Below, one piece after another: positions 10,747 to 55,404 of a stretch of DNA of 64,000 nt. The DNA comes from Vicia villosa (Eukaryota; Streptophyta; Magnoliopsida; Fabales; Fabaceae). The stretch is from the NCBI RefSeq assembly GCF_029867415.1, contig NC_081183.1:144146798-144210797 (forward strand), in the 5' to 3' direction. Numbering within the stretch: the first letter of the stretch is position 1; each line of letters starts with the position of its first letter. The notes below the pieces were generated by a model, which had not been told where the DNA came from, made no database searches, and was given only the letters and a program-made list of their open reading frames with translations. The translations under genes were made by a program, and so were the position numbers.

Positions 10747-10843
10747 TTCCGTAGATGCATCTCCAAAAGACCTTTTTTTGTTTAACGTTGTTTTGTTCCG
10801 TAGATGCACGTACGGAAGACTTCCGTAAGTGCATTTACGGAAA
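10747..10843. repeat. Left subterminal palindromes of the PMD element
   Basis: Three imperfect ~22-bp palindromes: near 10747 (TTCCGTAGATGCATCTCC), near 10797 (TTCCGTAGATG, CACGTACGGAA) and near 10820 (CTTCCGTAAGTG, CATTTACGGAA). All share the CCGTA arm and a core near TGCA. Confidence 0.85.
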
Positions 10844-11284
10844 GGTTTGACGTTATAACTCGCGTCAGACCTTTCCCCTCCCTCATTCTTCACATTTTCA
10901 AACTCAAAATCTCTCAAACTCTCTCAATTTCAATTTGACGTATTTCTCTATCCCGAGTTCGAAATACGTTGTCAACTCAAGTATCAAATTCCATTTGGTT
11001 CCTATATTTATTTAACCGGTAAGTTTTTGACATTTCGATTAATTTTAGAGTATTTGTAAAATCGAATTAGAATTCGATATTTAGGTGTATAAATGAATTG
11101 ATAGGTTTATCAACAGTGTTTAGAGACAATGTAGGGGTTGTTTGAGGTTTTAAACAAACGATCAAGCCACAAAAATAGAGTTTGTAGTGGCTGGAACAGT
11201 TCTCAGACACCATTGTTGCTTTATTTATTTTCTTCAGTTCTGACCTTGCTTATTACTAACCGTTTGAATTTTTTTAAAATTTCA

Positions 11285-12880
11285 GAGTAGGGATCCCGAG
11301 AGGTTTTACAACCATGGGCGGAAGATTAAGGATCTCGCGCAGCCTGACGAGAAGTGGTTTCAGGAGGTACTAGCAGCTTCAGGCATGAGGGATCTCTGTA
11401 CGCTCGGCTACCATACTATACATAACGGTATGCTTGCTGCCTTTGCAGAGAGATGGCATCCTGAGACCTCCTCATTTCATCTACCCCACAGTGAGATTAC
11501 CATCACCCAAGATGATGTGACATGCCTACTTCATCTACCTATCAGGAGTACCCTCTTTCGTCACGGTAGGATGACGAAGGCGGAAGCTCATGAGATGTTG
11601 ATTGCTGAGCTGGGGGCTGATCCCGATGACGCCCTTGAGGAGGTGGAGAGGACACGAGGGGCCCATGTCAGGTTTAGCTTCCTGCAGAGACAATATGCTG
11701 CGGATCTCACTACGGCACAACAAGCTAAGGGGACGAGTTGGAGCAGGGTACACACAGAGAGCAGGTGCTGAGATACTGCTTCCTATATTTGATAGGCACT
11801 CAGCTCTTTGTGGACACGAGCTCGTAGTACACAGACGTCGTCTACCTGACGTACTTATCAGATATAGCACGTATCCATGAGTACAACTGGAGAGAGATTG
11901 TACTGGCGTACAGTTACCACAGACTTGGAGAGGGATGCATGTGGAAGATAAGGACAGATGCGCGTAGCTGTACTCTAGTGGTGGTAACAATCTTATATTC
12001 TTCTACTTTTTTTATATTTTTTGATAGTACTTTAAAATAACCGTGTTTTTTTCCAGGGTTGGATACTACAACACTTCCTAGACATTATTGGCTCGGGAGA
12101 GGTTCCTACATACAGAGAGGTCATGCCACGTGCCAGTGCTTTCATCCCCTTAGAGGGAACCAAGTGTCTGATCCCTACAGGCGCGGTCTTGACTGCATGG
12201 CTGCCGAGGACATCAAGTACTACTGTTATGTTAAGCACTAGGAGACGGTTCCGTTTGACGAGATAGCTTTGTATTCTGGATGGTTGGCTGCCAGCTCGAC
12301 CATTGTTGTACGCTATCTTCCGGAGTGTGTCATGCGTCAGTTTGGATATGAGCAGACGATACCTCGCGATCCTACTGTCTCAGCTCCTATCGCCATGACC
12401 CGCAGGCAGTTAGATGAGGTCTTTGCATACCGGGAGCATCACATGGTCCCTGAGGAGGCACGAGCGACGCTAGCAGAGCACGTCTGGAGTTGTTTCGAAT
12501 GGTACATCTCATGGTACTACAGAGTCTCACACCCATACATGCTTCCAGCTGCAGAGGGAGGTCCGTCCAGACCAGCCCACAAGGAGATTCTTCGTGCGCA
12601 TCAGGCTCAGTTGGACCATACTCAGGATCTTCTTCCTCGGTGTCATCAGATAGCTGACAGGGGCCTCGGAACCATTGTAGAGGGTTTAATCACTGAGGGT
12701 ACTCCTTATTCGCGTGTGCTAGATGATATGATCAGGCTGGCAGAGAGTGCATACCGCCGACATCGTGCCAGGACCCGTGGAACACTTGACGCTAGGGGTA
12801 GAGCTAGCAGAGCCCTTGGTGGACGCGGAGGTGGAGGTAGAGGAGATGTGCAGGATGATACCAGGCATACTCAATATTGA
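11285..12880 (+). pseudogene. Plant mobile domain (MAIN-like) protein, broken
   Basis: The first exon (11285-11983, after TTTCAG) encodes a PMD/MAIN-like start: DPERFYNHGRKI, then AFAERWHPETSSFHLP and ITITQDDVTCLLHLPI. The second exon begins at 12057 after TTTCCAG with GWILQHFLDIIGSGEVPTY and ends with an Arg/Gly-rich tail and a stop at 12878-12880. Such proteins act in silencing and growth or are carried by transposons. The copy is dead: a frameshift near 11735, a stop in the first exon near 11827 (after VDTSS), a one-base loss near 12150 and a stop at 12239-12241. After the last stop, 203 residues remain open (12269-12880). It sits wholly inside the Mutator-like element 10681-13334. Confidence 0.85.
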
Positions 12881-13082
12881 TATTTGATGATGTATTTATA
12901 TTTCATTTTTGTATGTTTTTGATGATGTACTCGACACTTTGACCGACATTTTTTTTATATTATATTTTTATTGGTCTACCTACTATTGTCTTTAAAATGC
13001 ATTACTGAATCTGAAAATGTATGTCTTTAAAAATGGAGTTTCTGAATGAAAATGACATGAATTCAAAAAATAGCAGACTGTT

Positions 13083-13267
13083 CCGTTGATGCACCTACGG
13101 AACATTCTACCACATTTTGTAGATGCATCTACGGAAGTATTACTAAACTGAAAATAAGGTGAATTTAATTGTGTTTTCTTTTGTTTTATACGCTTCCGTA
13201 GATGCATCTACGGAAGGAATCAATTTTTTTTCAAAATATGGGGTGCTTCCGGATGTGCATCTATGGA
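13083..13267. repeat. Right subterminal palindromes of the PMD element
   Basis: Four palindromes: near 13083 (TTCCGTTGATGCACC, TACGGAA), near 13118 (GTAGATGCATCTACGGAAG), a perfect one at 13194-13217 (arms CTTCCGTAGATG and CATCTACGGAAG) and a decayed one near 13244. They match those at the left end. Confidence 0.85.
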
Positions 13268-14014
13268 AGTTACAGGCAAAAATGAAATTTCGTGTGGTGT
13301 TTAAGAGATCTATGGGGTTGGTTGAGAAACTTTCTCAAGATTATCATCTTCTTATTGAAATTATATGGATCTTATAGGTACGCATCCGCTTTCTATTTTA
13401 TTTGAATTCACATAAGAATTCATAAAGTATTGATGGTAAGAAACCCAACAAATAGAGTAGTATCGGAGTCATCCATATTTGATTCATGGGTGAATTTTAA
13501 TAATTATTGATATTTAATATGTTTGTGGTACACATAAATATTTCATATTTCACTTTTAATCCTTCAAAAAAATTCCTTCAAAGAATGATTTTTCTAAAAA
13601 ATTTCATTCATACATTGGTCGCTTGAAATTGCGGGGTTTTTATACCCCCCTCTAAACAAACTTTAAAAAAATATTAGTTACATTAACGATTCTAACACAC
13701 AAATTCATTAATGTCAACAAATTCATAAATCACAGTACAAAAAATTCGAAACAAGATAAGTCGCCAAGAAAAAACTACCAAAACTTCATTAATCATCATT
13801 ATCATGTTTATAAAATATTGTAATCATCATTATCATGTTTATAAAATATTGTAATTCATAACCAAAACGGTGATATGGTCTAAGAAACAAACAATTTAGC
13901 TTACATTACCCTCAAACAGAAATCAGTTCAAACCACCCATGGAATGAACATCTTAGACTGAGTTTCATACTTGACACCACTTCCATTTTTTTGTTTAGAA
14001 AGATATCCCAACTA

Positions 14015-14168
14015 TTTTTTTTGGCTTATTACCACCGGTACATATAGTCTGGTGCGGAGGTCAGTTCTGGCATCAAGTGGGTCTAGTCTCCTCTCGATCG
14101 CAGTTGCGGGGGATCGAACCGTGGTCCTCCCTACCAAGCCCAACGCCAATCACTACTGGACAAACTAA
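14015..14168 (-). mobile_element. tRNA-derived SINE
   Basis: Read on the minus strand, the element starts near TTTGTCCAGTAGTGATTGG, contains GGTTCGATCCCC (a clear RNA polymerase III box B) about 40 bases later, and ends in a run of A (T-run at 14014-14022 on the plus strand). Length is about 150 bp. The start resembles a decayed box A. A possible short target duplication around TAGTT is not convincing. Confidence 0.7.
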
Positions 14169-14453
14169 CGATTGATATAGCATCTACATTTAAATTTACT
14201 TATTATAAAAATAGAATATTGCAGTATATTTCCAAGTGCTTGATTCTTCTCATGACAACAATATAACAACATAGGCATTCAAATTTCAAGTTTCTTAGAC
14301 TATTGTTTGTATTATAATTATTATTCAGAGTTATGTTATGAACAACTCACAACTAATATACTTCAACTTCAAATAAACAAATACATAACAAATAAACTCT
14401 AAGGATGTCCTCGGATTTTCCATTATTTACTACAGAAAGCATAATTGTTACAT

Positions 14454-15162
14454 TTTATTCCTATGGATTTGTGTTTGAAGAAGATTTGGATGATCTTGTA
14501 TTCAAAGAAGGCTTTATCTTGACAATATGTTCATCACTGACTCCTATTTTCTTCGCATAACAACTGATTTCAAAGAATCTTTTAACAGCTTCATCCATGT
14601 AATTCTTTCCTTGCTTAACAATTATGTCTTTCTCTATTGTACCGGTAACTAGTGAAAATACTGTCTCCTTTAAGAACTGTTTCTAGTTGGATCAACTCCT
14701 GCTTAAATTCACCGAGTTTCGCATCTTCATTAGTCTCTCCTTTCCTTAACTTTACTGGTGCTGGAAGTTCCATTGCATCAAATAACACTAAAAAGAATCA
14801 ACAAAATGCAAAACATGCTGGAAAAGTTTATTAATAAAGATGAATACACGGTCAATGTATTATATATTTGTCTACGAGAATGAGGAACTAACCTGGGCAT
14901 GATCAGTCGTGGGTTCTTTCCTGATTTTAACAATACCTTCAAATGTTCCAGTCCATTGATCTTTCTTGGTAAGAAAATTAGGCAAATTGAAGACTTTCTT
15001 AATTGTTGTGGAAATCGATGAGTGTTCACATTTTGATGTAGGAGTTGGTGATCTGTTTGACCCATGAACAACTGCATCAATATGACAAAAAGAACTCCTT
15101 GTGATATGACACGTGGTTAAGGGAATGAAGATCATCAGAACTAACGAGGATTTTGAACTCAT
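14454..15162 (-). pseudogene. Unrecognised spliced gene fragment inside the TIR element
   Basis: Minus-strand coding stretches follow one another: 15162-14872 (includes [19 protein letters not shown]), 14772-14660 ([20 protein letters not shown] onward) and 14640-14454 ([15 protein letters not shown], ending SSSNTNP and a stop). The third is in a different frame from the second, so a frameshift or unseen intron separates them. I do not recognise the protein. It is lysine/glutamate-rich with no membrane segment. The position between inverted repeats suggests a captured fragment of a host gene. Confidence 0.45.
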
Positions 15163-15736
15163 TCGAAAGCTCTTCTGAATTTAATTTCATCGATTTTGAT
15201 TTTGATTCTTTCTCTGACATTGATGAATTTGTGTGTTATAATCGTTGTTGCAAAACTTGCTCGCAAGGTGTTCAACAGGAGTTCAGAACTGATATCTTTC
15301 TTCTTTTTTCTGGGTTTGCTTAGAGGGGGTTTAAAACCCCCACAATTTCAAGTGTTTTCAGATTTTTTTTAACAAGTTGTCTTCCATGCAGCGTGCCACG
15401 TCAGCTGGAGTTAATGAAAGTTGAAAGGAGTGATCAAAATTGTGGATGGAAAACTTTATGAGAATTATTATTTGAAGGAAAATTTTAGAGGGACAAAAAA
15501 CGAAATTTTGATATTTATAAGGATCAAAAACATATTTAACCCTAATTTTAAATGAGTCAATTAAAATTTTAAAAAATTACCAAAGTGATGTCTTTTATGG
15601 AGATTACTTATAGGAATATTAAATGTTAGGGTGTACATCTTTTTAAGTGAATGTTAATTGGCACAGGGAAAATTTGATATTTAATATGATTATATACACA
15701 AATTTATAATGATAAACATGTGATAATTTTAACGTT

Positions 15737-16160
15737 CACTAGTGCAGGAAGAAGATTTTACACCGGTTCTTTTAAACATATTACACTCATTATAATCGGG
15801 AGTAAACTCATCAGGTGAGATATGTATGAAGATTTTACACCCATTTAAAAAGTGGTGTAAAAAGAGGATACATTACATCTTATTTTAGAAAAAATGAGTA
15901 TAAAATGTCAGATATTAATAAAGAATTTCTAGGAATATACACCCTATTTTTGATAAAATGGGTGTAAATTTGTAGATACATACACTAATTTAAACGAATT
16001 TACACCCTATTTTTTATTTATTGGGTGTAAAACACCTAATATTTAGACAAAATTTTGATGTATTTACACCCTGTTTTAGATAAAACAGATGTAAAATGAC
16101 TAATATTTACACTTAATTTTAACAAATTTTAACGGGTGTAAAATCTCCAATATTCATATA
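15737..16160. mobile_element. CACTA-type terminus with TTTACACCC subterminal repeats
   Basis: CACTAGTGCAGGAAG at 15737 is a typical CACTA end. It is followed by alternating TTTACACCC and GGGTGTAAA, often as hairpins around AT-rich loops (15836-15862, 15945-15966, 16009-16030, 16064-16096). No opposite end and no coding sequence are visible, so this is a fragment. Confidence 0.7.
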
Positions 16161-16194
16161 GGATTAAAATTTACACTTAATTTTAACAAATCTC

Positions 16195-16400
16195 ATATTT
16201 TACTTTTAGTTTTTTAAAAAAAAGTTCTTCAAAAAATAGTCTTTCTAAAAATTTTCATCCACATTTTTGGTCTCCAGTTAAAATCATCGGTAATTCAATG
16301 GTTAAGTAGTAAATCGTCGCTAAAACTGTCGTTAATTCTAACGTTAATTTGCAAAAACCATCGCTAAGTTGCAAGAAGGACCAAAAGTTAATGAAATTTT
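16195..16400. repeat. Dispersed repeat, opposite copy of 5410-5600
   Basis: Contains the complement of the 5410-5600 phrases: AAAACCATCGCTAAGTTGCA, GGACCAAAAGTTAATG and TTTTTTAGGAGG. It directly follows the CACTA-type fragment. Confidence 0.5.
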
Positions 16401-16484
16401 TTAGGAGGATATTTTTTAAAGAAAATTTTTTTAAGGACTAAAAGTGAAATATGAAATATTTAAAAAAATCATAAACATATTTCA

Positions 16485-16487
<3 letters not shown>

Positions 16488-16550
<63 letters not shown>
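16488..16550. repeat. (TA)n microsatellite
   Basis: An uninterrupted run of TA dinucleotides of about 60 bp. Confidence 0.98.
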
Positions 16551-16552
<2 letters not shown>

Positions 16553-18000
16553 GGGTGTAACTTATCCGTTATTACCTTGTATTTATATATACACACAAAA
16601 AGATATTCAATCAGTTACTTCATGTTAATTGTACCAACAAATCATACATTGAACAAAAATTATATCTATATGTAAGTTTTTGAGAATCGCTTTCGTTTTG
16701 TCATTATTTCTTTGTTTTCTTGTAGCTTTTGCTCTTCAGCCATGTGTATTTGGTGTTCTTGTTGATTTTACTTTTCCTCCATTTGTAAAAGAAAATTGAA
16801 CGCGGAGTTATATGTGGCCGATTGATATTTTTTCATGCATTGATATATAATAAATTAAACAAATATATAATAAAAAAAATGACCTAAATCCTAATGAACT
16901 TTAATGCCTCATGAGTCATGATACACGCTGGGACTGTTACGTTAAACTCAATCTTTCGATCTACTGGAAAACAATTCCTTTAAGTTAAACTAGTGAATAT
17001 AAGATGTTAAACTCAATCTTATATTTCGCTTTAACCTATTATATTCACTATTTCTCTTGACAATTGACTTTCAGTCCCGGCCCTCAGATCTTCGTAGACA
17101 TCTTCCTTTCTAACTACCCTCATGCATACAACTTAAGCCTACGAAATTACACTTATGTTTTCTTTCTTGGAAGAATCTTAATCACTTGAACCGTGTTTGT
17201 ATACTCCAATATTTCAGTAAGCTAGTAGTTTAAATAACCATCTATATACCTATAAGTATATCACATTAGTGTAACTTAAAGGGGTAAATGATTCATGTGT
17301 ATCAGGAGCATGAAATTATCACTATTTCCTTTATTAATTTTCATATGAATCACCAAATTTATATAAAAAAATGGGGTATCATGTTAAAACAATTATTCAT
17401 TTAGACGTTGGAATATGCAATTTCATTATATAAGTGCCCACCAAAAATCATAAATTACAAATCTTCAATGATGTCACTAGTAACAAATTGCATGTTATTC
17501 TCGAAAAGACGAAAACACCCGAGCATTTCACCGCTAGACCACACACACGCACACTCTCATTTAATTACAATTTAACCGAAATTTTTGAGACCCTTTGCGG
17601 TAGCTCGCCTTGCACAACAAAATAACACGACCCATCAAAATCAATCAAAAAATAAATACAAGGTACAATAAATTTCACTTTAATACAAACTTGACTGAAA
17701 AATTCAAAAGAAATTAAAATGTTTCTGAGAAGTAAGGTTGTTAGCAATGACAAAAAATAAAAGACAAAATCGAAAGCTCTGTAATGTCAACACAATACAT
17801 CATAACCAAGAAAAGTGCTTTGTTTGGCCCACTTCATTATCATTAGAAACTGCATCACATTCCATCAAAGTCATTGAAGATGGGAAACTCCTTTGTCATT
17901 ATTTCAGAGATAATTGCAACCAACATAGGACTGTTAATTACATGAATTCGTCTCCATATTGAAAGATTACACATAGTTTTACACATGCATATGACACAAA
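16551..18000. other. No gene seen
   Basis: Short open frames around 17434-17625 and 17738-17962 have no recognisable similarity, no splice logic and ordinary AT-rich composition. I regard the stretch as non-coding. Confidence 0.5.
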
Positions 18001-18180
18001 TTCTAACCTAAACTATTTTGATACATGTGACGCAACTATAAATATAGACATCAAAGTCGACACTTCAACTAATACATTGACATCAATAATAATTATAAGA
18101 ACTAAATAAATTAAATATAATTATATGTATCAATGTCGTGTCAGACATTGATGTGCAAAACATGACACATATTTTTATTA
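18000..18180. repeat. MITE-like 'acac/tgtc' repeat
   Basis: Phrases around CATGTGACGC, CAAAGTCGACACTTCA and TCAATGTCGTGTCAGACATT resemble those at 36345-36475 (ACACGGATACCGGACA, GTGTCGTGTGGTGTCTGAC) and 44435-44500. This looks like one family of short elements scattered in the window. Confidence 0.4.
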
Positions 18181-18412
18181 AGAGGTGTCGGTGTTACAAA
18201 GAAAATTAACTAAAATTAGTGAAAGTTAGTTGTAGTAGTAAGAAACAAAGCTTAGTTAAGCTACAAGAGGGGCTCATAGTGATAGCATCAAGTAGTGGTG
18301 CAGCTAACTAATATTGAAAGCAACAGAATACATAAAGAAAGAGGAAGAGACAGAAGTGGGCAATCGTGAGATTCAGCGCAGTGTATGGGATTTTGTAAGA
18401 TATACTGACAAA

Positions 18413-18784
18413 CAGTGGCGGAGCCAGGACCCTGGTCCAGGGGGTGCAAACTTCCGAACATTAATTAATATTAATAATTATAGTAATATATATTTAAATT
18501 AATTAATACTTATAGTAATATATATTTAAAAAATTACATTGTATTGAAAAAATAACAATAGCAAAGTCAGTTCTAGTGCTGCATTAAAACAAACAATAAC
18601 AAAGTCTTAACCAAACATTCCTAAACTTGGGCTAGAAATCAAAGGTTAATTTGAACTTGGGCTATGGGTGCAAAACTATTTTTTCAGGGGGTTCAAAATC
18701 AAATAAAATAGAGATATTGGTGCAATATTTTAAAATCCAGGGGGTTCAATTGAACCCCCTCATTATACTCTCCCTCCGCCACTG
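18413..18784. mobile_element. hAT-type MITE with 8-bp target duplications
   Basis: Terminal inverted repeats CAGTGGCGGAGCCAGGA (18413) and TCCGCCACTG (ending 18784), flanked by perfect 8-bp duplications CTGACAAA at 18405-18412 and 18785-18792. Length is 372 bp with no coding. GGGGTGCAAA and GGGGGTTCAA phrases occur towards the ends. Confidence 0.9.
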
Positions 18785-18929
18785 CTGACAAATGAGCCGG
18801 TCGGTTAGGTGTTTGATATAATGTCTGATAGAGCCAAAACTCAAATGCTTTAAAACCACTTCTTATTTTTCCATGTCATAGGATTAGGATCCTATACTAA
18901 TGAATCTAAACAAAATAACAACAAATGTT

Positions 18930-19343
18930 ACGGGTACACTTAGGACCCGTAATATATTGAACCGACTGGAATATAGTTTAATATTCGGTTCGATAATTAA
19001 ATCGTTGAATTATATTTATGAATCAAATTAGCTAAAAATTAAGTTCGTTAAATAAATGAGCTGAACTTGAATTATACAATGTTCGACTCGTTAGATTTAT
19101 GAGTCAACTTAATTATATATATGAATTATATTATCTTTAAAAGTATGTTTAAAGATTTGCTTTAAATCTTACCCCGATATTTTCTTTTAATATAATAGTT
19201 TTAATTTATAATTTATATTCTCAAATGACTAAAATATTTTAAAAATAATTATACAAATGAAATCAACATCGTAAAAATTTCAATCTTATAACTCTTATTT
19301 TAATTCTATATTTTTTTATCAAAAAAATATTAATTTAAAATGT

Positions 19344-19382
<39 letters not shown>

Positions 19383-19590
19383 TTAAAAAATGACTTTTAA
19401 AATCGTGAAAAAAGCGAGTTGAACCTAACGAGTTGAACCGAGTTGTTCGCGAATTTCTAACGAGTCGAATTTGAGGTGAAAAAAATTTGTGACGAACTCA
19501 AATCGATATTTGAGCTTAATCAATTCTTAACGAGTCGAGCCGAGTTGAAGCGAGTTCGACTCGACTCAACTCATTTCCAGCTGTAACCAT
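18930..19590. repeat. 'gagtcgag'-rich dispersed repeat with (TA)n
   Basis: Recurrent ACGAGTTGAAC, ACGAGTCGAG and GAGTTCGACTCGACTC phrases near the right end, with partners such as GTTCGACTCGTTAG near 19080. It probably folds back and is a MITE-like repeat. A (TA)n run sits at about 19347-19378. No coding. Confidence 0.45.
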
Positions 19591-20802: not shown

Positions 20803-20809
20803 AGAGGGA

Positions 20810-21500: not shown

Positions 21501-21521
21501 TGTTTTCTTCCCAAATCAGTT

Positions 21522-23400: not shown

Positions 23401-23404
23401 TAAT

Positions 23405-25490: not shown

Positions 25491-25539
25491 CCAACTTGGT
25501 GTGGCACTTGAGGACGACGAGGATTTTCCTACATCAAAT

Positions 25540-38999: not shown

Positions 39000-39190
39000 A
39001 GTGATGGTTCTTGAAGATTGTTCAAGTGATGACGCTTGAATACTGATCAATTGAAAATGCTTGATATATTTATCAAATGATGATGCTTGACATGTTGTTG
39101 GTCAAGTGATGGTGCTTGATATGTGAATCAAGTGATGATGCTTGATATCTGGATCAAGTGATGATGCTTGATATGAACAAGTGATTGTGC
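39000..39190. repeat. ~29-bp tandem repeat 'caagtgatgatgcttgatat'
   Basis: Six or more diverged units of AAGTGATGATGCTTGATAT followed by a variable CTGGATC-like tail. It may belong to an LTR of the neighbouring retroelement relic. Confidence 0.8.
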
Positions 39191-42484: not shown

Positions 42485-42489
42485 ATTAT

Positions 42490-46100: not shown

Positions 46101-46628
46101 ATTTTGAAAAAAAAATTCTCTAATTAAAACAAATTTAATTTTTTTATTGAATATTTAATATATCTATTCTATAAGCCATGAAACCAAAGATACTCTATTC
46201 AAAACATTTGCAGCAAAAATCATGTTTGATTAATTAAATTTTTAATGACATGGTTAAATTCATATGTCAGAAAAATGTCTTATAGAGCTTAGAGCAAGAA
46301 GTTGAATAAGAAATTAATTAATTATTTAACTAATAAATTAATTATTACCTTCAAATCCTTTCAATGCTTTTGCAACTTTCCTTGCACAAGCTTCACAATG
46401 CATATCAACTTTGAGCACTATCTCTTGAGGAGGTTGTTCTTCATCTTTCTTTTCTTCTTCCTTTTTCTCTTCTTCCTTCTTTTCCTCTTTGCTTTCTTCT
46501 TTCTTTTCTTCTTCCTTCTTCTCCTTGATTTCAAAACCAAACAAAACATTTTAATATCAACTATAAAAGCTTCATCAATGAACTACTAGTATAAACATTA
46601 GGTGTAAAATAACACTTACTTCACCCAT
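43181..46628 (-). CDS. Heavy-metal-associated isoprenylated plant protein (HIPP) with two HMA domains
   Basis: Five coding exons on the minus strand, 46628-46620, 46523-46349, 45718-45516, 44285-44195 and 43530-43181, join in phase to 275 residues with standard splice sites. The first exon encodes only MGE. HMA domain 1 spans exons 2-3: IVLKVDMHCEACARKVAKAL with the metal-binding C-x-x-C, then GVEEVSADSKSSKVVVKG. HMA domain 2 spans exons 4-5: VVTIVLKIRMHCDACAQVIQ, then GVESVETDLGNDQAIVKG. Before and after each domain are Lys/Glu-rich runs encoded by GAA/GAG/AAG codons. The C-terminus is CSVM, a CaaX farnesylation box. HIPPs are metallochaperones or signalling adaptors at membranes and the nucleus. 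A run of TA at 46662-46673 is a possible TATA box very close to the ATG. Appears intact; subgroup not assigned. Confidence 0.93.
43640..43960. repeat. MITE-like insertion in HIPP intron 4
   Basis: GAGATGGAAAAACAGGCCAG, GCCTGCCCGTTGAGCC and ACGGGTCTAAACGGGAC phrases resemble the ends and GC-rich interior of the MITE at 24366-24703. Borders are uncertain. Confidence 0.35.
45299..45460. repeat. ~45-bp tandem repeat with CCCTAAA in HIPP intron 3
   Basis: Three to four units of AACCGTCTAATCTTAATC, then a variable AACCAAACCCTAAA. The CCCTAAA element equals one plant telomere unit (telobox) but is spaced about 45 bp apart, so it is not telomeric DNA. Confidence 0.7.
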
Positions 46629-47889
46629 TTCTAGAAATTTTGCTTGCAACAGAAGAGTGTAATATATATATACACTAATTGATTGATGTGAATTTTTTTT
46701 CTCTTTGTGTAGTTATAGAGAAAGGTTAGATGAGAGAGTGAGGGAGAAAAACATTAAATTAAGGTAGAGATTTTGAAAATCTGAGGTGGACCATTTATGC
46801 AGAATAGAGAGAGTAAGGACCATGGATGAGTCAGCATGACCTATAACTTTGGGCCGTAGTAATGACACTAGTACTCTTGTTCCTAATTGTCTTCATCATC
46901 TTGTACTAAAGAATGGTGGTGATGTATTTTTAGAAATTTCTATAATAACTAATATACTTATATTATAGTATATACAATTAAAATATCATAAATTTGTCAG
47001 ACACACAAATATGTATGGATAAATTCAAATTTTGATACTGTTGGTATACTCGAGTTTATTACTAATTTGTATATTAGGACGAGTGTAATTTAAGTATTTC
47101 AAATAATTTGGGTTTTGAGGTAAAATTTAGAGCATACTTTTTGGGATTACTCTATGCAATTTTAGTAGTATTCAGTATTCACGCACCTAATGAAAAAATA
47201 ATAATGTCTTAAGATTTGTAATATAATTTTCCGACGAATTTAAAATACAATTAAAGTCAAATCCCAGATCCATGCTTAAATATAGATGAAAATATTCGGA
47301 GGCTAAGCTCCATAATTTTTTACAGAAATTAAGTTTTGTACGCGTTTGATTCATATAACGCGTCAAATCTTACTTATTCATTCTTCTTCATTTCATTTCA
47401 GAAAGTTTAATTAGAACCAAAACAAAATTCGTTGACAAACTCTATTTCCATCATTTTTAAAGTTTTCTCGCTACTTCTATTACATTGCATTCAAGACTAA
47501 GACATCAATCAATCTCTACTCCCTTCGTTCAATCGAAAACTGTAGACTTCTCACCCTCGGTAAATTTTTTGTTTTCTTTCATTATTATTGTTTTATAATG
47601 CATTAGTTTGAAGTTAAACGCATAATAGGTTGTTTGAGGTACATTAAGACGCATAATAGATTTTTTAGTTAGGCATGCATGTAGATTTTTTGAAAATTGA
47701 AGTTAGAACATTTGGGCAAAGTATGCTTTTTTCGGCATTTTTCATGTTTTTCAAGAGGATACAAAAGTTGACTTTCTAGTTTTGTTGTTCTGCATTGCAG
47801 AAGTTAATGATGTAGGAGGGTGGTTGTGCGTATCAAAGAAAAAGTCGCGCGTCAGAACCGTTCAATAAGATTTGTGCAAGTTTGGCGTC
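46629..47889. other. HIPP promoter region and AT-rich spacer
   Basis: Immediately upstream of the HIPP start (minus strand) is a TA run at 46662-46673, then purine-rich sequence (GAGAGAGTGAGGGAG near 46731). Beyond 46900 nothing recognisable is present until the Copia relic. A CT-rich leader-like stretch near 47510-47560 may be the 5' end of a retroelement. Confidence 0.4.
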
Positions 47890-49710
47890 CAATGTCAAAA
47901 GGACTTGTATTATACCTTATGAGAAAGACATATGTTCTAAGAGTTGGAACTTAACCCTAGAGGTTCTGTAGGTTTTGGAGGAATTAAGAAGGGTAAGATT
48001 ATTGGTGCAGGAACAATTGGTACAATTATCTTCCCTCTATTAAAAATGTTTTATTAGTTGAAGGTCTAATGCATAACCTTCTGTCCATAAGTCAATTAAG
48101 TGACAATGGTTATGACATTATATTTTATCAAACGTTTTGTAAAATTGTGAGTCAAAAGGATGGCTCTGTACTTTTCAGCGGTAAGAGGAACCAACATCTA
48201 TAAAATCAAAATTTCTGATTTAGAAAAACAAAATGTAAAATGCCTTATGTCAGTGAACGAAGAACAATGGACTTGACATAGAAGGTTGAACCATATTAGC
48301 ACGAGAAGAATCTCTAAGTTCAACAAGCTCTACTTAGTCAGAGGCCTTCCAAATCTGAAGTTGGCTTAAAATGCTCTTTGTGAGGCATGCTAGGAAGATA
48401 AATTTTCTAAAACCTCCTTTAAAGTTAAATTTTTTTCCACCTTTAGGCCTCTAGAACTCTTTCATATTGATATGTTTGGTCCAGTTAAAACAACTTCAAT
48501 ATATGGCAAGAAGTATGGTTTAGTCATTGTACATGACTACAACAAATGGACATGGGTAAAGTTTTTAAAACACAAGGATGAGTCACATTCTGTGTTTACT
48601 ACCTTCTGTTCACAAGTGCAAAACGAAAAAGGTTTAACAATTGTTAAAGTCAAAAGTGATCATGGTGGTAAATTCAAAAGTGATCATCTCGCATGATTTC
48701 TCCTGTCCTATAACTCCTCAACGGAATGGAGTTGTGTAGAGGAAAAATCGTACCTTGCCAGAACCATGGGCAATGAGACAAATATTGCAAAGCACTTCTA
48801 GACAGAAGCGGTAAATACTGCATGGTACATTCAAAATAGGATCTTTATAAGATTGATTATCGATAAGAATCCTTATGAATTGTAGAAGAAAAAAAATCCC
48901 AACATTTCTTATTTTCATCCATCTGGTTGTATTTGTTTTATGCTCAATAATAAAGACAACTTAAACAGGTTTTATTATAAAGCTCAAAATTGTGTCATGT
49001 TAGGATACTCTAAACTCTCAAAAGGCTACAAAGTATATAACACTCAAACCAAAATTATTGAAGAATCAATTCATGTTAAGTTTGATGATAAGCTTGACTC
49101 TGAAAAGTCAAAGCAAGTTGAAAAGCTTGCAAATTTAGAAATCATCTATTCAAATTCTGAAGTCAAGGACTCTGAGGATAAAGACTATGGAAGTGCTAAA
49201 GATAAAACTCACAATCAGTGCCAGAAGTTGCAGACACACCAGCACCTTAGAGAAAGCACAAGCAAAGATTCTCTCATCCTGAAAAACTGATTATAGGGTA
49301 CAAAACAGAACCTAAAAGAACCATATCTTCATTTAGACAAGATGAATAAATGCTTCTTGGTTTGATGTCTATGACGAAACCAACATCCATTGATGAAGCT
49401 CTTCCAGACACAGAATGGATGAAGAATTAACTAAAAAATTACCAACTAAAAGAGAGTAACATTACTATCTTCTATGATAATACTTATGTTATGTGTTTTT
49501 CTAGAAATCTCATCTTACACTCTAGGGCCAAACACATTAAGATAAAATATCACTTTATCAAAGACTACGTTCAATAGAGAATTTTAGACTAAAAATTTAT
49601 CTATACATACCATCAATGGGATGATATCTTTACAAAACCCGTTGCCGAAGATAGATTTTTTTTTTTGAGGAATTTGAAAATGGAAAAGTGTCTAACTAAA
49701 TGATAAATCT
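47890..49710 (+). pseudogene. Ty1/Copia polyprotein relic with internal deletion
   Basis: In shifting plus-strand frames: the pre-integrase region (VEGLMHNLLSISQLSDNGYD near 48055, FNKLYLVRGLPNLKL near 48320), the integrase core start (ELFHIDMFGPVKTTS near 48455, VHDYNKWTWVKFLKHKDE, VKSDHGGKF) and its end (FHPSGCICFMLNNKDNL near 48915, CVMLGYSKLSKGYKVYN). The sequence then jumps to the RNase H end (NLILHSRAKHIKIKYHFI near 49505, YHQWDDIFTKPVAEDRF near 49615), so most of the reverse transcriptase is missing. Stops and frameshifts are numerous. No flanking LTRs were identified. Confidence 0.85.
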
Positions 49711-49875
49711 CAATACGTGTAGCCTTTGGATGGTTAAAGTGTAATTCTGGGAAACGTGACTCTAAACCAGTTATCCCTCTGAAGTTAGAAGGCTCTCTGG
49801 GTCAGAAGGTCCTAAGTCAAAATCCCTCTAGGACTTTCCGTCTTCTAGACTATGAGATATATTAATGGTTAAAAT

Positions 49876-50120
49876 CACTACTACAAAAAACACATCTTAT
49901 ACATTTAACCTCGGCTACATAAGCGAGGTCACAAAGGGCGGCATAACAAGTTGTCACTTTACCCTTCGGTTATTAAAACGCCGAGGGTTTAGTTAAATGC
50001 ACATGGCTTCGAACTCCAGTAGCAACACTTTTATTATTACCAAAACTAGCATATCTTACCTCTCGATTTATCTATAAAACCAAAGGGTAAGACAAATTGT
50101 TTTTTTTTTATGAAAAAACT
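49876..50120. mobile_element. CACTA-type terminus with CCTCGG subterminal motif
   Basis: CACTACTACAAAAAACACAT at 49876 is a typical CACTA terminal repeat. The following sequence has CCTCGGCTACATAAGCGAGG, CCTTCGGTTATTAAAACGCC and AACCAAAGGGTAAG, i.e. subterminal repeats with hairpin potential. The other end is not visible, so it is a fragment. Confidence 0.7.
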
Positions 50121-50289
50121 CGTTACATTATTTACCCAGAATATTAATACATTAATCTGTTTACAATACATTGTTTACCCAAAATATTACATTTTTTACA
50201 AAGAAAGTTAAGGTAAAAAAACAAATTTCTTGAAGGTCTAGAATTTAGATCTTCAAATTATTGAAACTTGGGGGAAGATCAACTGTTGG

Positions 50290-50770
50290 GTGTCAGGATA
50301 TTTTCAATTGCTTTATGGCTGATCAACAAAGTACTGCAATTATGGGTGAAAACTTTCCACAAATCACGTTATCAACATTAGTTGCCGACCTAGAAGTTTT
50401 TTTGTGAACTAATCGTGAATTTTGAAAATTTGAAGCTCAAAGAGTTTGATCTCACTGGAGATGACGCTACTCAAGGCTGAATATCTTTCTTTCATCGTCT
50501 CAAAGGACTAGTATATCATGCATTGGTGAAGGATTTTTGGATTCATGCTAAAACAACCGACCTTGTGATTTCATCGTTCATTCTAGAAAGAAAGATTTTC
50601 ATCACAGAGCAATCTATTGCAAAGTTGTTTGGTCATAACAGTTTCAGAAAGAAATGCTTCAACATGTCTTCGAAGGAAGAAAGAATCACACAGATGGTTT
50701 CCACTACTTTTAGAACAAATGTCAAAAACTCAACCAAAGTGAAAGATCTTTGGCCAAGTTTGAGGATTTG
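50290..50770 (+). pseudogene. Retroelement envelope-like / plant-transposon-protein relic
   Basis: A decayed first part (about 50318-50510) leads into an 82-codon frame (50523-50771): LVKDFWIHAKTTDLV, ILERKIFITEQSIAKLFGHN. This resembles the N-terminal half of the 'envelope-like' ORF of legume retroelements (V-K-x-F-W, then ITE-x-S-I-A-x-L). No adjacent polymerase is present. It may come from the same kind of element as 38130-38935. Confidence 0.45.
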
Positions 50771-50996
50771 ATCCAAAATCATCTTAGCATGCTTAATTAA
50801 TAATTTTTTAACTAATAACTCGCTACTTGTGACATAAACTTGTAAATTTCAGGGAAAACAATTATAATCTTCAGTCATTAACTTTTGTTTTTTTTTTTTA
50901 AATTTGCATCAACTGCTTTATTTTTTGAGAATTTCTTTATCCACCTCCTTATCTTCTTGGTCACCCCTGGCGAAAACCCCAAAATTTCCCTAAACT

Positions 50997-51200
50997 TCGG
51001 AAATGCATTTCCGAAGTCACTTTTTTATGAAAAAAAAGGTGGTTTCGGAAATGCACTTCCGAAAACATGTTTTTTTTAATGAAAAAAATTAATTTCGGAA
51101 ATGTACATCTGAAATAATGTTTTTTTCCAGAAAATAGGTGAATTCGGAAGTACATTTCCGAATTCACCCCCTTGGAAGAATTCGGAAATGTACTTCCGAA
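50997..51200. repeat. Left subterminal palindromes of the MULE-OTU element
   Basis: Five palindromes in 200 bp, about 45 bp apart: near 50997 (CTTCGGAAATG / CATTTCCGAAG), 51045, 51094, 51142 and 51180. Two more lie at about 51770 and 51810. The core is TGCAT, TGTAC or TGAAC. Confidence 0.9.
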
Positions 51201-51294
51201 ATAAGGTCTGATACAGAAGAAAAATAACAAACAACAACGATTCGATTTATTTAAAGGATGAAGATTACATCGATCACATTACATAAAATTAAAG

Positions 51295-51666
51295 TTACAT
51301 ATTGTTAAACACGGGTAGGTGAGGATGAGTCAACATTTTGATAAGGTCGGCCCCCGATCTTTGAAGTTTCGCATCCAACTCGATCGGACCCTTCGAAGAA
51401 AATCGGTCGAAAGTTGTCCACAAAACCGCTAAATCTTTGTCGTTCTTGACCTCGAATGGGGTGAACTCAATGTCTCTGTCGTCATTAAGCGATGGCGAGC
51501 GGTACTCAAGCTTGACAACCTTCCGATTTTCTGGATATTGCAATAGCGTGTTGAGCGACGTTATCAATTCAGCGAACGGCGTGTCGCGCGAGAAGCGGAA
51601 TTGGAACGGCATCGGGTAGCCACTGGTGAAGTATACAAATGCTAGGTGGGGGTAGGTTTGTGTCAT
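51295..51666 (-). CDS. MULE accessory protein, PB1-like small ORF
   Basis: An intact 123-residue frame. I chose the ATG at 51666 and not the more upstream in-frame one at 51744, because a TATA box (TATAAAT on the minus strand, 51709-51715) lies about 45 bases ahead of it and the upstream codons would fall before the likely transcription start. The protein has the form beta strand, KVVKLEYRSPSLNDD, FTPFEVKNDKDLAVLWTTFD, IELDAKLQRS. This resembles the PB1-like N-terminal region of some plant MuDR transposases, here as a separate protein. It lies downstream of the transposase gene on the same strand, inside the same element. Role unknown; the similarity is from memory and modest. Confidence 0.6.
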   Translation of the reverse strand: MTQTYPHLAFVYFTSGYPMPFQFRFSRDTPFAELITSLNTLLQYPENRKVVKLEYRSPSLNDDRDIEFTPFEVKNDKDLAVLWTTFDRFSSKGPIELDAKLQRSGADLIKMLTHPHLPVFNNM

Positions 51667-51708
51667 TGGCGTTTTGTGGTGTGATGAGGATGAAAAGGAT
51701 TGTGTTGT

Positions 51709-51716
51709 ATTTATAG
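51709..51716 (-). promoter_or_regulatory. TATA box of the accessory ORF
   Basis: TCTATAAATAC on the minus strand, about 45 bases before the ATG at 51666, followed by a CT-rich leader containing TTTTCATCCTCATCAC. Spacing fits a plant RNA polymerase II promoter. Confidence 0.6.
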
Positions 51717-51759
51717 ACTTATTGGAGTAATAATGGCCCAACAAACCTTATCTTGCATT

Positions 51760-51832
51760 CAGTGGATGTTTCGGAAATGAACTTCCGAAATAAGTCCAAA
51801 AACATGTATATTTCGGAAATGAACTTCCGAAT
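51760..51832. repeat. Two palindromes upstream of the accessory ORF
   Basis: Near 51769 and 51809: TTTCGGAAATG followed by AACTTCCGAA. They sit just beyond the TATA box of the accessory ORF, so they could double as promoter elements. Confidence 0.8.
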
Positions 51833-52068
51833 TTTGCAGAAACAGAGGTGAAAAATCACATTTTGTGCATTGCATTCTGTTTTGAGATAACAATAACAAT
51901 TACATACAAAATAGGCACAACATAAATAATGACAACATTAAACATACTTATATTATATATGTATTGAATCAGTTTGATTTTACATGGTAAACAACAATAC
52001 ATACAAAAAATGACACGCACCGGTCATTACAAAAAAAAACGGTCCGGTTAAAACTAAAATTCGCCGAA

Positions 52069-54813
52069 TCAATCGGTGGCGCTTAGATCTAAAATCAGTA
52101 TGTTCTTCGACCGCTCTCTATTTTCCTCACGCTCTTGCTTCATCATTTCTTCAAACTCCGCCATTCTTTCAACGAAAGGATCCGGCCAAGTCTCCGCCTC
52201 ATTTGTATGATGTGCCGTCCACTCACAAGAAGTAGCCGGTATAGGACACCCCAGTTTTTAAAAAACTTGCACGAAGTGGCGCGATCTTAGATACCCGATA
52301 CATATGGTGCGGCTCGTTGCGTCCAAAGGCGGTCGGCTATGAAGTGGAAAGAATGTCTCACATAATCCAAATCTCGTCAAATTGACACACACCCGATCGT
52401 ACGCACTTGCTATGAGATGGCCCATATCGGGGAATGACATCCACTTCGAAACCGGGGCGATACCGCTTAGTGATGGAACAAGTGAATCATGAAGTTTCTC
52501 AAAGTTTTCTTGATTTTCATAGAGTCGTGCGTAGATGTCCCTATGCGAGGTTAACTCCGAAATAAGTTCCCGTCGAATAAGAGTGTGATTTTCTTCTCCT
52601 TTTTCGAGCAAACCCGCAACGGCCCGATATCCACAATTGCCGTCGCCTCCAACATCAACCATGTTATCAATATATTTGTGCATAAAAAGCGGCATCTCAT
52701 CAATGTAGATCATGGGAGATTTTTTTATCGGAGGTGTGCGAGGCGGCTTCGAAATACGCGCTCCTTTGTTACCACTACACTTTTACTTTGGTGTTGGTGA
52801 ATCCGGGATCAATGCATCAACATGTTCAAAGTAGGAAGGAGATCGTTTGGTTGATGTGTCTTCTTGGGTATTTTTCGGTTTTTTTGGCGCACCTTTCGTT
52901 CTAACCGGTTGAGATGGCGGTTTCAAATCGGTGTCTCCGGAAATGCAATTTTTCGCAATTGTTCTTTTATGTGCATTTTCATTGTGTCATCCGCTTTAGC
53001 AAACTTATCCATTATCACTTCCAACTCGTCGGTGATGATTATTTTGGAATCATTTTCTTTCGATGGCTCGAAAAAATCAAAACGGAGCTTCTTCCAATGG
53101 TAGATTACCTCATCCATGCGTATCGGTGAATTCAACTTCATCTTTTTAGAAAGTATACAAGCACATGGAAGCCCGTATGTTTTTCTAATTGTGCACCCAC
53201 ATTTAGAACTATTCGGACTTGTTGTCTCCGCCCGCTTCACTTCATGAAACATAAAATTCAATCCCGCACGGGATATGTTGTAAATCAATTGCGAGAATAG
53301 ATTTTGGCCCTTAAACCGGTGTTCCATAACCATCTTGCTCTGACCGAAAGATGTTTGAATTTCATTGTGTTGATTTTCGAGCATTTGGTTCACGGTGTCC
53401 CATCCCCGACACAAATTCCTCTTGCTATCACCCAACCATCTCTTCAACGCCGCATGTGCGGATTCAACTCGGTTAGTTGTAGTGCAACCAAGATGTCTTA
53501 CTCGATCTGTCCAAGCACAAACAACTTTTTCCTTTACTTTGTCAAGGATAGTGGATTCGACATAATGATAAAAAGTCTTAATAGAAACGCATAAAGACCT
53601 AAAGTGTACCAATTTCTCGGTATACATCTCTTCAGAATGTGCATCTAAAATCTCCCTCCATGCGGCCATAATCCTATCCACCACAACATCAGCTTTGAGG
53701 ACTTTATCGTTTTCATCCAGCCTATCTTTCGTGCCAACCGCGGGTTTGAGCTTACTTCTCACGTTGTACGTTATGTGATACCGGCAAAGTAATGCGGTCG
53801 ATGTCAGGAAGACGGCATCGACCGCATTCATCAAAGCATTGTCTCGGCCGGTAACAATGACATTTGGCATATTCTTTTGATCAACCAACAAAGACTTGCA
53901 TATTTCCAAAGCCCATGTAAAGTTATCTTCTTTTTCACATTCCATAAAAGCAAATCCGACTGAAAATGTCTTGTCCGTCGAGGTCACACCGACAATCTCT
54001 AGAAGCGGAAGCCTATACATGTTGGTCTTGTACGTCGAATCCATCACAAGAACGGTTGGAAATGTGTTAAACAATTTGATACTTTCGGGATGAGTCCAAA
54101 AAATGTCACGCACCGTAACTTTGTCCTCACACGTTCGGAAGCTTGAAACGTATTGGTTATCGCCTAATAGTTTCAAAATTTGTTGCATTTCCGACCGAGG
54201 GCCCATTTTCAAGACTTTAAGATTGTGTCGTTCATTGTATACTTGCTTGATATTTGAAACGCTATCCGTTTTTTTCGCTTCAAATCGGCAAGTATGTTTC
54301 TCGGCGCCACTTTGATAATCGATAAATCCGAAATAACATTCTTCTCTTCGCGGGACAACCGACACGCCGTTGGATGCCCGTGTAGCTTGGCATCCAAGGC
54401 ATGATTATGAATTCACAAATGGCGCTTAAACGCCACAAATCATCAACCCTCCGAGTCACACGCAACTTAAACGGACACCCACACTTTCTCGATCCCGTGT
54501 CTTCGTGTTTTAATACCCGGTTTGTTGGTACATACCTCCCACCCCTCTCGCAATTCAAAACGACAAAGACTTTCCGTATACTATTTCCATTGTCGGACCT
54601 TAAAATAACAATTCCAAATCCAAGTTTACTAGCTTCACTACGAACCGAATCAAGCAAGTGTTCACGACAAGCGAAGCTCCGATCATGTGTAAATTGTTGT
54701 CATACATCCACTGCATCGATCATGGATTTAACATCATTAACCGGATCGTTATTAACGTTGACATCTTCCGGAACTACTACGTCATCAGCGACAATGTTGT
54801 CCGTATGCACCAT
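52069..54813 (-). pseudogene. FAR1-type MULE transposase fused to an OTU protease, decayed
   Basis: Read from an ATG at 54813 on the minus strand. The N-terminal FAR1-like DNA-binding part includes NCERGGRYVPTNRV and RKCGCPFKLRV. The MULE transposase domain follows (VLVMDSTYKTNMYRLPLLEI, FTWALEICKSLL, TNRVESAHAALKRWL), then a SWIM zinc finger (CGCTIRKTYGLPCACIL). A Pro/Lys-rich linker (PPSQPVRTKGAPKKPKN) leads to an OTU domain with VGGDGNCGYRAVAGLL (Asp, Cys) and HFVQV (His). The tail is acidic/Arg-rich (FEEMMKQEREENRERSK). The longest open part is 54365-52923. Breaks: stop at 54702-54700, frameshifts near 54412, 54280, 52930 and 52255, stop near 52790. The second DDE Asp region reads TGRDNAL where TDRD is usual. 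No introns are needed. The linker frame shows that transposase and OTU were once a single polypeptide. Confidence 0.85.
52258..52713 (-). other. OTU protease domain of the fused transposase (open segment)
   Basis: A 151-residue open segment starting MIYIDEMPLFMHKYI. Catalytic Asp and Cys lie in GGDGNCGYRAV and the catalytic His in SRHFVQV near the end. All three are present even though the gene around it is broken. OTU proteases cleave ubiquitin chains. The segment joins in frame to the linker upstream except for the stop near 52790. Confidence 0.8.
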
Positions 54814-54869
54814 ACCTAACATATGCAAAAATTAGAAAAAATGACCAAAACTGTTTTTTTACTGCCAGA

Positions 54870-55404
54870 CATTATTTCGGAAGTGCATTTCTGAAATTTG
54901 TTAGGTAACTTATTTCGGAAATGAACTTCTGAACCATCACAGTTTTCATCACAAAAATCAGCAACAATGTAGTGAAATAGGGGATGAAATGAGAGATGTT
55001 TATCTCAAATTGTAGCTTTCTATGCTCCCTTTAACGTGATCAACAGTTTGAAACTTGATTTTGAGACGAAAAATGGATTGATATTGATGGAAGTTTTGGA
55101 GAGGGTTTGAGTTTGTTTTGGAGAAAAATGATGAAATAGTGAAGGAGGGAAAATGGTATATGAACACATTATTTCGGAAATGTACTTCCGAAATAATAGC
55201 TGACTGTTAAAAACAACGTATTTTTTGAAATTTCATCCATTTCAGAAATGCATCTCCGAAAACACCAATTTTTTTTAGATTTCGAAAATGCATTTTCGAA
55301 ATATGCATCTCCGAAAACACCAATTTTTTTGAGATTTCGGAAATGCATTTCCGAAATCTGAAAAAATTTAGAAAAAAAAATACTTCGGAGATACATCTCC
55401 GAAG
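54870..55404. repeat. Right subterminal palindromes of the MULE-OTU element
   Basis: Palindromes near 54872, 54911, 55173, 55240, 55282 (a doubled one), 55335 (perfect arms TTTCGGAAATG / CATTTCCGAAA) and 55382 (CTTCGGAGATA / CATCTCCGAAG). Same motif as at the left end. Confidence 0.9.

What the first reader, a model, noticed from the sequence alone, without database searches (positions are those of the whole stretch)
10747..55404. Two Mutator-like elements share a plan of subterminal ~22-bp palindromes whose arms covary
In the PMD element, about seven palindromes have arms CTTCCGTAGATG / CATCTACGGAAG. In the MULE-OTU element, about fourteen have arms TTTCGGAAATG / CATTTCCGAAA. Both have a TGCA-like core, the same length and a clustered, roughly 45-bp-spaced arrangement at both ends, yet the arm bases differ in matched pairs. 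This looks like arrays of dimeric protein-binding sites that have diversified together with a cognate DNA-binding protein. I know of no named description of this layout.
Basis: partly seen in the sequence, partly recalled or inferred. Interest (0 to 1): 0.75.

Follow-up and report, generated by a model that had tools for sequence, protein, structure and literature searches.

The report
Palindrome arrays in plant Mutator transposons
Two related jumping-gene families in this plant genome carry rows of short palindromes that look like docking sites for a protein encoded by the elements, and the site's spelling differs consistently between the two lineages, which suggests a lock and key that changed together.

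Summary
The window has 7 palindromes of one type (P, TTCCGTAGAT-NN-ATCTACGGAA) inside a PMD element and 14 of another (O, TTTCGGAAAT-NN-ATTTCCGAAA) inside a MULE-OTU element. Genome-wide, sites within 1 mismatch number 3,087 (P) and 7,849 (O), reversed control 0; P|O hybrids 104, 2 of them exact. The two elements are homologous: similar terminal repeats, with the first palindrome 61-68 bp from the end in 22 of 24 ends examined, only 2 of them P-type. At least four families share the plan. P sites go with one PMD clade and one transposase lineage, O sites with another of each. Arms are more conserved than spacers, and the two halves change nearly independently, one position excepted, which favours two protein half-sites over a hairpin. 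The likeliest reader is the transposase's AFT/FAR1-type zinc finger; PMD or a small second protein are rivals. Only one P/O split is seen, so co-diversification is plausible, not shown. Close precedents exist: VANC motifs of VANDAL elements and subterminal repeats of CACTA elements. New variant of a known kind.

The parts
10681..13334 (+). Non-autonomous MULE-type element carrying a PMD gene; TIR GAGAATTTCTTAACTCAACT / GAAAGTTTCTCAACCAACCC (13 of 20 alike); 9-bp target duplication TCAAGATTA on both sides
   Evidence: (TSD/TIR search)
10747..10842 (.). Left P-type array: palindromes at 10747-10768, 10796-10817, 10821-10842
11268..12880 (+). PMD gene pieces (open frames 11268-11771 and 12242-12880); the frame is interrupted between them (intron or decay not resolved)
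   Evidence: ORFs; PF10536 E 1.2e-9, above cut-off, and 0.0012, below it
13081..13268 (.). Right P-type array: palindromes at 13081-13102, 13115-13136, 13194-13215, 13247-13268
50927..55465 (-). MULE-OTU element; ends GAGAATTTCTTTATCCACCTCC / GAGAATTTATTTATTGACCTCT; flanks TATTTTTT / TATTTTAT (8 bp, 1 mismatch), a weak target duplication in AT-rich flanks
   Evidence: related ends; the automatic search found no duplication for it
50995..51201 (.). O-type array at one end: palindromes beginning at 50995, 51043, 51093, 51142, 51180 (each 22 bp)
51298..51666 (-). Small second protein (123 aa from its first Met), no Pfam family; 83-85% identical in L071 and L036, 32% in L017
51769..51832 (.). O-type pair (51769, 51811), 103-166 bp upstream of the small gene's first Met
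52258..52782 (-). OTU-like part (weak match); in copy L071 its counterpart is the C-terminal part of one 928-aa open frame with the transposase
   Evidence: PF02338 E 0.047, below cut-off; no OTU family was reported for L071
52923..54404 (-). MULE transposase catalytic region (and, by eye, a SWIM-like cysteine/histidine motif)
   Evidence: PF10551 E 2.8e-23
54405..54813 (-). Remnant of the transposase N-terminus with the AFT/FAR1-type DNA-binding domain, frame broken in this copy; first Met at 54813
   Evidence: intact in L071 (PF08731 E 1.2e-7)
54875..54934 (.). O-type pair (54875, 54913), beginning 62 bp upstream of the transposase's first Met
55172..55404 (.). O-type array at the other end: palindromes beginning at 55172, 55240, 55280, 55335, 55383 (each 22 bp)

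Best explanation
These are cis-acting recognition sites of a MULE clade. Each 22-bp palindrome is two inverted 10-bp half-sites with a 2-bp freer centre, read by a protein that binds as a symmetric dimer or as two subunits. The most likely protein is the element's own transposase, through its N-terminal AFT/FAR1 (WRKY-GCM1) zinc finger. Arrays next to the terminal repeats would load several subunits to pair the ends; the site pairs just upstream of the transposase gene and of the small gene would let the protein control (activate, repress or un-silence) its own genes. PMD elements and the 1.2-1.4-kb family ride in trans by keeping terminal repeats and sites. When the recognition domain changed between the P and O lineages, the sites changed with it. 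Shown: anatomy, sharing, type-to-clade match, arm conservation. Inferred: binding, dimerisation, function, direction of cause.
For: First site 61-68 bp from the end in 22 of 24 ends (2 P, 20 O), with and without genes. The window's PMD element is complete (both ends, TSD); its only frames of 150 aa or more are the two PMD pieces and one on the other strand, and the window's transposase finds no match in L040. The autonomous-looking copy L071 has arrays but no PMD match: one 928-aa frame and a 149-aa frame, with sites ending 66 bp upstream of the first Met of the transposase and 99 bp upstream of that of the small protein. The N-terminal domain matches AFT above cut-off (E 1.2e-7 in L071, 1e-6 in P-type L011) and solved yeast Aft2 (4lmg, E 5e-6). 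P-type transposases 65% and 69% identical to L011 keep P sites (L072, L073: 9 P, 1 tie, 1 O at only 14 of 20). N-terminal identity P-O is 37% and 44%, within P 64% and 81%; one 52-aa P-type piece matches the window's transposase C-terminal half at 63%. Arms against spacers.938/.817.945/.850.670/.618; CpG kept .90/.67.90/.65.58/.44 (pairs are not independent).
Against: No binding data. The P/O split is one event in the PMD tree, so linkage by descent alone explains the match. Symmetric sites suggest a dimer, but no dimer interface was tested. The AFT/FAR1 hits are remote, and FAR1 is below its Pfam cut-off in both (27.8 and 19.3 against 28.1). PMD-A aligns poorly and its arm/spacer difference is small; in PMD-B the centre is also more conserved (.892) than the spacers. 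Four of 30 PMD loci have no sites within 1.5 kb and lie scattered inside the P side of the tree. Sites of the other type occur: 6 O and 2 ties among 88 hits in P-seed loci, 4 P and 1 tie among 181 in O-seed loci, overlapping loci counted twice.
Confidence: 0.5

Rival explanations
1. The sites are targets of a separate element-encoded anti-silencing protein (PMD or the small second protein), working like VANC: it binds arrays in noncoding parts of its family and removes silencing.
For: VANC binds short motifs that vary between VANDAL families (PMC5735166, PMC10398659, passages). A role of MULE-captured PMD in anti-silencing was speculated (PMC5418596, passage). Site type tracks PMD clade. CpGs inside sites are better kept than elsewhere, as expected for sites kept unmethylated or selected. 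Sites lie upstream of genes as well as at ends.
Against: L071 has the arrays without a PMD match. VANC21 and VANC6 motifs are 8-9 bases long; the word palindrome does not occur in the main text of that paper. No DUF1985 or DUF287 was reported among the 11 frames scanned. The small protein has no Pfam family and only a low-confidence model (pLDDT 56).
Confidence: 0.25
2. The palindromes act as hairpins or cruciforms (DNA or transcript structure), with no sequence-specific reader.
For: They are near-perfect palindromes. In O sites, position 8 shows double changes more often than independence (24 against 9.7 expected, 21 of them to the same base), and O5, O6 and P7 show small excesses (3, 2, 1 against 0.3, 0.6, 0.1).
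Against: At the other 16 of 20 arm positions double changes are near expectation (no significance test was run). By eye the position-8 doubles sit mostly at two homologous sites (second from the end in PMD-B, third from the left end in the short family), i.e. inherited. Exact bases are kept, not just pairing: position 2 is T in 280 of 280 O half-sites.
Confidence: 0.07
3. Passive repeats: arrays spread by tandem duplication and hitchhike with the elements, without function.
For: MULE and VANDAL ends can hold tandem repeats (PMC5225508, PMC5735166); spacings cluster (28-29, 38-40, 46-51 bp in 100 listed of 1,492 O pairs) and spacers of homologous sites are similar between copies. Two L071 sites share some flanking sequence (84% over 32 nt).
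Against: Arms are more conserved than adjacent spacers. In L071 the 10-copy repeat family is essentially the palindrome itself (27 nt). P and O keep the plan although the transposase N-terminus is only 37-44% identical.
Confidence: 0.1
4. The sites recruit a host transcription factor, and the P/O difference reflects a host factor family.
For: Pairs lie 62-166 bp upstream of first Mets. The Arabidopsis DOWN motif tied to PMD proteins (CATGCAGTTT in the MORC1 promoter, PMC9899485) shares ATGCA with the centre of many sites.
Against: The shared ATGCA straddles the variable centre, so it is weak. Site type follows element lineage. Arrays sit at both ends of the short family, inside which no match to the window's transposase, OTU, small or PMD proteins was found.
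Confidence: 0.08

Closest known systems
VANDAL elements and VANC proteins (Arabidopsis; PMC5735166: abstract, passages and one section; PMC10398659: passages)
   Same: Related transposons with many copies of a short motif in noncoding regions; motif differs between related families; proposed coevolution of motif and protein
   Different: Here the motif is a 22-bp palindrome at a fixed distance from a recognisable TIR (VANDAL TIRs are described as degenerate); no VANC domains reported in the 11 frames scanned
CACTA (En/Spm, Tam1, soybean Tgm) subterminal repeats and TNPA-like proteins (PMC2613891: passages)
   Same: Subterminal repeats; binding by an element protein; two motif subfamilies in one legume, with coevolution proposed
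   Different: Here MULE transposase, 8-9 bp duplications and other terminal repeats; the soybean CACTA element made a three-base duplication
Muta1 and other mosquito MULEs (PMC5225508: passages)
   Same: MULEs with subterminal repeats and 8-9 bp duplications; non-autonomous copies share TIR and subterminal regions
   Different: 12-bp tandem repeats with 3-4 bp linkers inside long TIRs, not spaced palindromes
PMD-carrying MULEs (PMC5418596: passages)
   Same: PMD carried by MULE elements
   Different: Reported there as PMD-transposase fusions in several grasses and Amborella; the window's PMD element has no transposase and shares ends and sites with a separate transposase element
Yeast Aft2 and plant FAR1/FHY3 DNA-binding domains
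   Same: Related domain in the transposase N-terminus
   Different: Their binding sites (recalled, not looked up) are not this palindrome

Membership tests
MULE (Mutator-like element) | MULE transposase domain | tested here: met
   PF10551 E 2.8e-23 in the window's OTU element, 2.5e-25 in L071
MULE (Mutator-like element) | 8-11 bp target duplication, mostly 9 (rule recalled) | tested here: met
   PMD element TCAAGATTA 9 of 9; short family exact 8-9 bp in 5 of 8 copies, 1 more with 1 mismatch, 2 without a credible one; L071 exact 8-11 bp, edge ambiguous; window OTU element only 7 of 8
MULE: the window's PMD element itself | Own transposase | tested here: not met
   Only PMD pieces and one opposite-strand frame of 150 aa or more inside it; no match of the window's transposase in L040. 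Filed as a non-autonomous relative by TIR, duplication and shared sites only
MULE-OTU | OTU protease domain | tested here: inconclusive
PF02338 E 0.047, below cut-off, in the window; not reported in L071 at E up to 1.
VANDAL/VANC system | VANC protein with DUF1985 or DUF287 | tested here: not met
   No such family among the 11 frames scanned against Pfam; not every frame of every copy was scanned
VANDAL/VANC system | Element protein binds the motif and removes methylation | not testable with these tools
   Needs binding and methylome data
CACTA | Terminal CACTA repeats and 3-bp duplication | tested here: not met
   Ends begin GAGAATTTC or variants, duplications 8-9 bp
AFT/FAR1 (WRKY-GCM1) DNA-binding domain | Profile match | tested here: met
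   AFT PF08731 above cut-off in L071 and L011; FAR1 below its cut-off of 28.1 in both (27.8, 19.3); Aft2 4lmg E 5e-6
Dimeric protein-binding sites | Two inverted half-sites, freer centre, half-sites vary independently | tested here: inconclusive
   Centre variable but in PMD-B still more conserved than spacers; halves near independence except O8 and small excesses at O5, O6, P7. Consistent with, not proof of, dimer binding

The most novel reading that the evidence does not exclude
A large plant MULE clade uses a palindromic address code: an AFT/FAR1-type zinc finger reads arrays at the ends and in the promoters, and a single switch of its specificity re-wrote thousands of sites across autonomous, PMD-carrying and short families in concert, leaving two recognition groups (P and O) in one genome with few hybrid sites. 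PMD elements would be carriers of an accessory (perhaps anti-silencing) protein that depend on the group's reader.
Probability: 0.35. Interest if true: 0.72.

Novelty: new variant of a known kind. Interest (0 to 1): 0.5.

Why it matters
It gives two natural, related transposase/site pairs in one genome with thousands of sites each, so the question of how a transposon's reader and its sites change together becomes directly testable by domain swap. It also places the PMD, whose function remains to be determined (PMC5418596), in elements that share terminal repeats and sites with a transposase element. And it shows how MULE families that carry different genes can be grouped by their sites as candidates for cross-mobilisation.

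Tried and rejected
Helical phasing: spacings cluster (P 25, 40, 49-52, 79; O 28, 38-39, 47-51; O 28-29, 38-40, 46-51 in 100 listed of 1,492 pairs). For 46 spacings the best R between periods 9.8 and 10.8 was 0.51, reached by 0 of 5000 jitters of +-5 bp, but a 13-bp period, at the edge of the scan, gave 0.55, so no helical claim is made. The spacings come from related families and are not independent.

Hairpin model: disfavoured by near-independence of arm changes, with the exceptions told above.

Literature for the motif itself: 4 arm strings searched in full text; 18 papers matched, and by their titles none is about these elements (listing only). Searches listed nothing that I could see describing this layout; I opened 7 papers (PMC7156037, PMC5735166, PMC9899485, PMC5225508, PMC10398659, PMC2613891, PMC5418596), reading passages in all and one section and the abstract of PMC5735166, none whole. 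Subscription papers are mostly not held.

DOWN motif of MAIN/MAIL1 (CATGCAGTTT, PMC9899485) shares only ATGCA with the sites; not taken as evidence.

A/T runs of 6 or more between sites: 52 of 79 O spacers and 23 of 90 P spacers against 6.9% of 3380 control stretches; spacers of homologous sites are not independent, so left as an observation.

Structure of the small protein: AlphaFold without an alignment, pLDDT 56; too poor for a fold search, none was run. No protein-homology search of the large database was run.

Rows dropped: L004, L015, L020, L027 and L064 (overlapping or near-identical) from arm, spacing, spacer and tree counts, and L040 (the window's own copy) also from the arm, spacing and spacer counts; L013 and L039 fell out of the PMD tree because their best match was under 90 aa. 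The arm/spacer test used 11 PMD-B, 8 short-family and 22 PMD-A loci that I chose, not all loci; its first form has a selection bias that reduces but does not remove. In one search, 2 of 11 PMD-B loci (L026, L033) gave no terminal-repeat match and so no end.

Full report
WHAT IS THERE. The window lies in an unnamed 2.03-Gb genome, a plant by its PMD genes (inference). Scanning it for either palindrome found 7 P-type sites between 10747 and 13268 and 14 O-type sites between 50995 and 55404, plus two chance-level hits, where about one is expected by chance.

ANATOMY. The P sites lie in a complete element, 10681-13334, with a perfect 9-bp target duplication TCAAGATTA and terminal repeats beginning GAGAATTTCTTAACTC and GAAAGTTTCTCAACCA. 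It carries a PMD gene (PF10536); no transposase was found in it. The O sites lie in an element at 50927-55465 with a MULE transposase (PF10551), an OTU-like part (weak, E 0.047) and a small protein without a Pfam family. Its target duplication is weak (7 of 8) and the automatic search missed it. A related copy, L071, has one 928-aa frame joining transposase and the OTU-like part, and the small protein; Pfam reported no OTU family there. Its duplication is exact, 8-11 bp, with an ambiguous edge.

THE TWO ELEMENTS ARE RELATED. One search printed 24 element ends, plus the start of L072. They begin with variants of GARAWTTTCTTTACCCACCTCC, and in 22 of 24 the first palindrome begins after 61-68 bp; of the other two, L032 has 81, apparently because its repeat was called one step too far out, and L018 has no site, apparently because the pattern matched elsewhere. 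Only two of the 24 are P-type: the window's PMD element, 66 bp at both ends. So the shared plan looks inherited. At least four families share it: PMD-A (P sites), PMD-B (O sites), transposase elements (P and O lineages) and a short family of about 1.2-1.4 kb (O sites) inside which one search found no match to the window's transposase, OTU, small or PMD proteins.

GENOME-WIDE. Within one mismatch there are 3,087 P sites, 7,849 O sites and 104 sites with one P and one O half, 2 of them exact; the reversed controls have none. With looser limits there are 6,684 P (3 mismatches in 24, control 1) and 32,806 O (2 in 22, control 0). All 39 seed loci, 35 distinct places, have another site within 120 bp. 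They were the first exact matches in genome order, all on contig C1.

TYPE FOLLOWS LINEAGE. Of 30 loci fetched by the window's PMD, 26 have sites: 179 P, 1 O, 3 ties; 4 have none. P-seed loci gave 80 P, 6 O, 2 ties; O-seed loci 176 O, 4 P, 1 tie, overlapping loci counted twice; the 4 P lie in the neighbouring P-type remnant in L017. Of 24 O-seed loci, 12 (11 distinct) encode a PMD, 38-58% identical to the window's over the matched pieces. In a tree of 41 PMD rows the 10 with O sites form one clade (support 100/100); the 27 with P sites and the 4 without sites lie on the other side. P-type transposases 65% and 69% identical to L011 still have P sites (L072, L073). A remnant next to P sites has an OTU-like part 51% and a small protein 32% identical to the window's. 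This is one split, seen in two kinds of protein; it does not test coevolution by itself.

WHAT THE SITES LOOK LIKE. From 218 P and 140 O sites, half-sites are TTCCGTAGAT and TTTCGGAAAT. They differ at positions 3, 6 and 8; position 6 separates best (P: T in 406 of 436; O: G in 261 of 280). The two central bases vary (GC in 130 of 218 and 85 of 140). Double changes exceed independence clearly at O position 8 (24 against 9.7), slightly at O5, O6 and P7, and are near expectation at the other 16 positions (no significance test). The O8 doubles come mostly from two homologous sites (by eye). Arms are more conserved than adjacent spacers in three families, and CpGs inside sites are better kept than elsewhere (with more selection bias). 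PMD-A aligns poorly and its difference is small; in PMD-B the centre too is more conserved than spacers.

WHERE THEY SIT. Besides the ends, there is a pair of sites upstream of each gene in the two transposase elements read. In L071 the nearer sites end 66 bp before the transposase's first Met and 99 bp before the small protein's; in the window the distances are 62 and 103 bp. In 9 of 11 PMD-B loci a pair 37-38 bp apart lies inward of the end array, on the PMD side.

WHO READS THEM. The transposase N-terminus has an AFT/FAR1-type zinc-finger domain in both lineages, related to yeast Aft2 of known structure (4lmg, E 5e-6). The N-terminal region is 37-44% identical between P and O and 64-81% within P in the pairs measured; a single 52-aa P-type piece matches the window's transposase further on at 63%. 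Because L071 has arrays and no PMD match, the common reader is more likely the transposase or the small protein than PMD. I put 0.5 on the transposase.

COMPARED WITH WHAT IS KNOWN. The idea of arrays that change together with an element's own DNA-binding protein is published: VANC and its motifs in VANDAL elements (PMC5735166, PMC10398659), and subterminal repeats of CACTA elements with TNPA-like proteins, including two motif subfamilies in soybean and an explicit coevolution proposal (PMC2613891). Subterminal repeats in MULEs are known in mosquito (PMC5225508). PMD in MULEs is known as fusions with transposase, with an anti-silencing role speculated (PMC5418596). What I did not find in the searches named in Tried and rejected is this layout: spaced 22-bp palindromes at a fixed distance from the TIR and upstream of genes, in two matched spellings across PMD, transposase and short families. 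Hence new variant of a known kind, interest 0.5.

Noticed in passing
window 1814-1967: Another cluster of near-palindromes built on AGCGCTTTT/AAAAGCGCT in a different repeat; may be a separate transposon end.
   Followed up: no
window 55491-55629: A 139-bp inverted repeat (38-nt arms, 82% complementary, ACCCCCTGTAATATGAGCG...) just outside the MULE-OTU element, like a small hairpin MITE.
   Followed up: no
L071:5124-5570 and window 51298-51666: Small second protein of the MULE-OTU elements, no Pfam family, low-confidence model. Small frames beside P sites in L001 and L012 looked similar by eye only.
   Followed up: partly
O and P arrays, e.g. window 51017-51042: Spacers between sites often hold A or T runs of 6 or more: 52 of 79 O and 23 of 90 P spacers against 6.9% of controls.
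   Followed up: partly
L070:1-3601: The P-type transposon remnant next to L017 adjoins frames that look by eye like gag of a copia-type retroelement.
   Followed up: no
G000:C116:1153901-1161419 (L044, L054, L048): Three PMD-A copies in a row, about 2 kb apart, with P sites around them.
   Followed up: no
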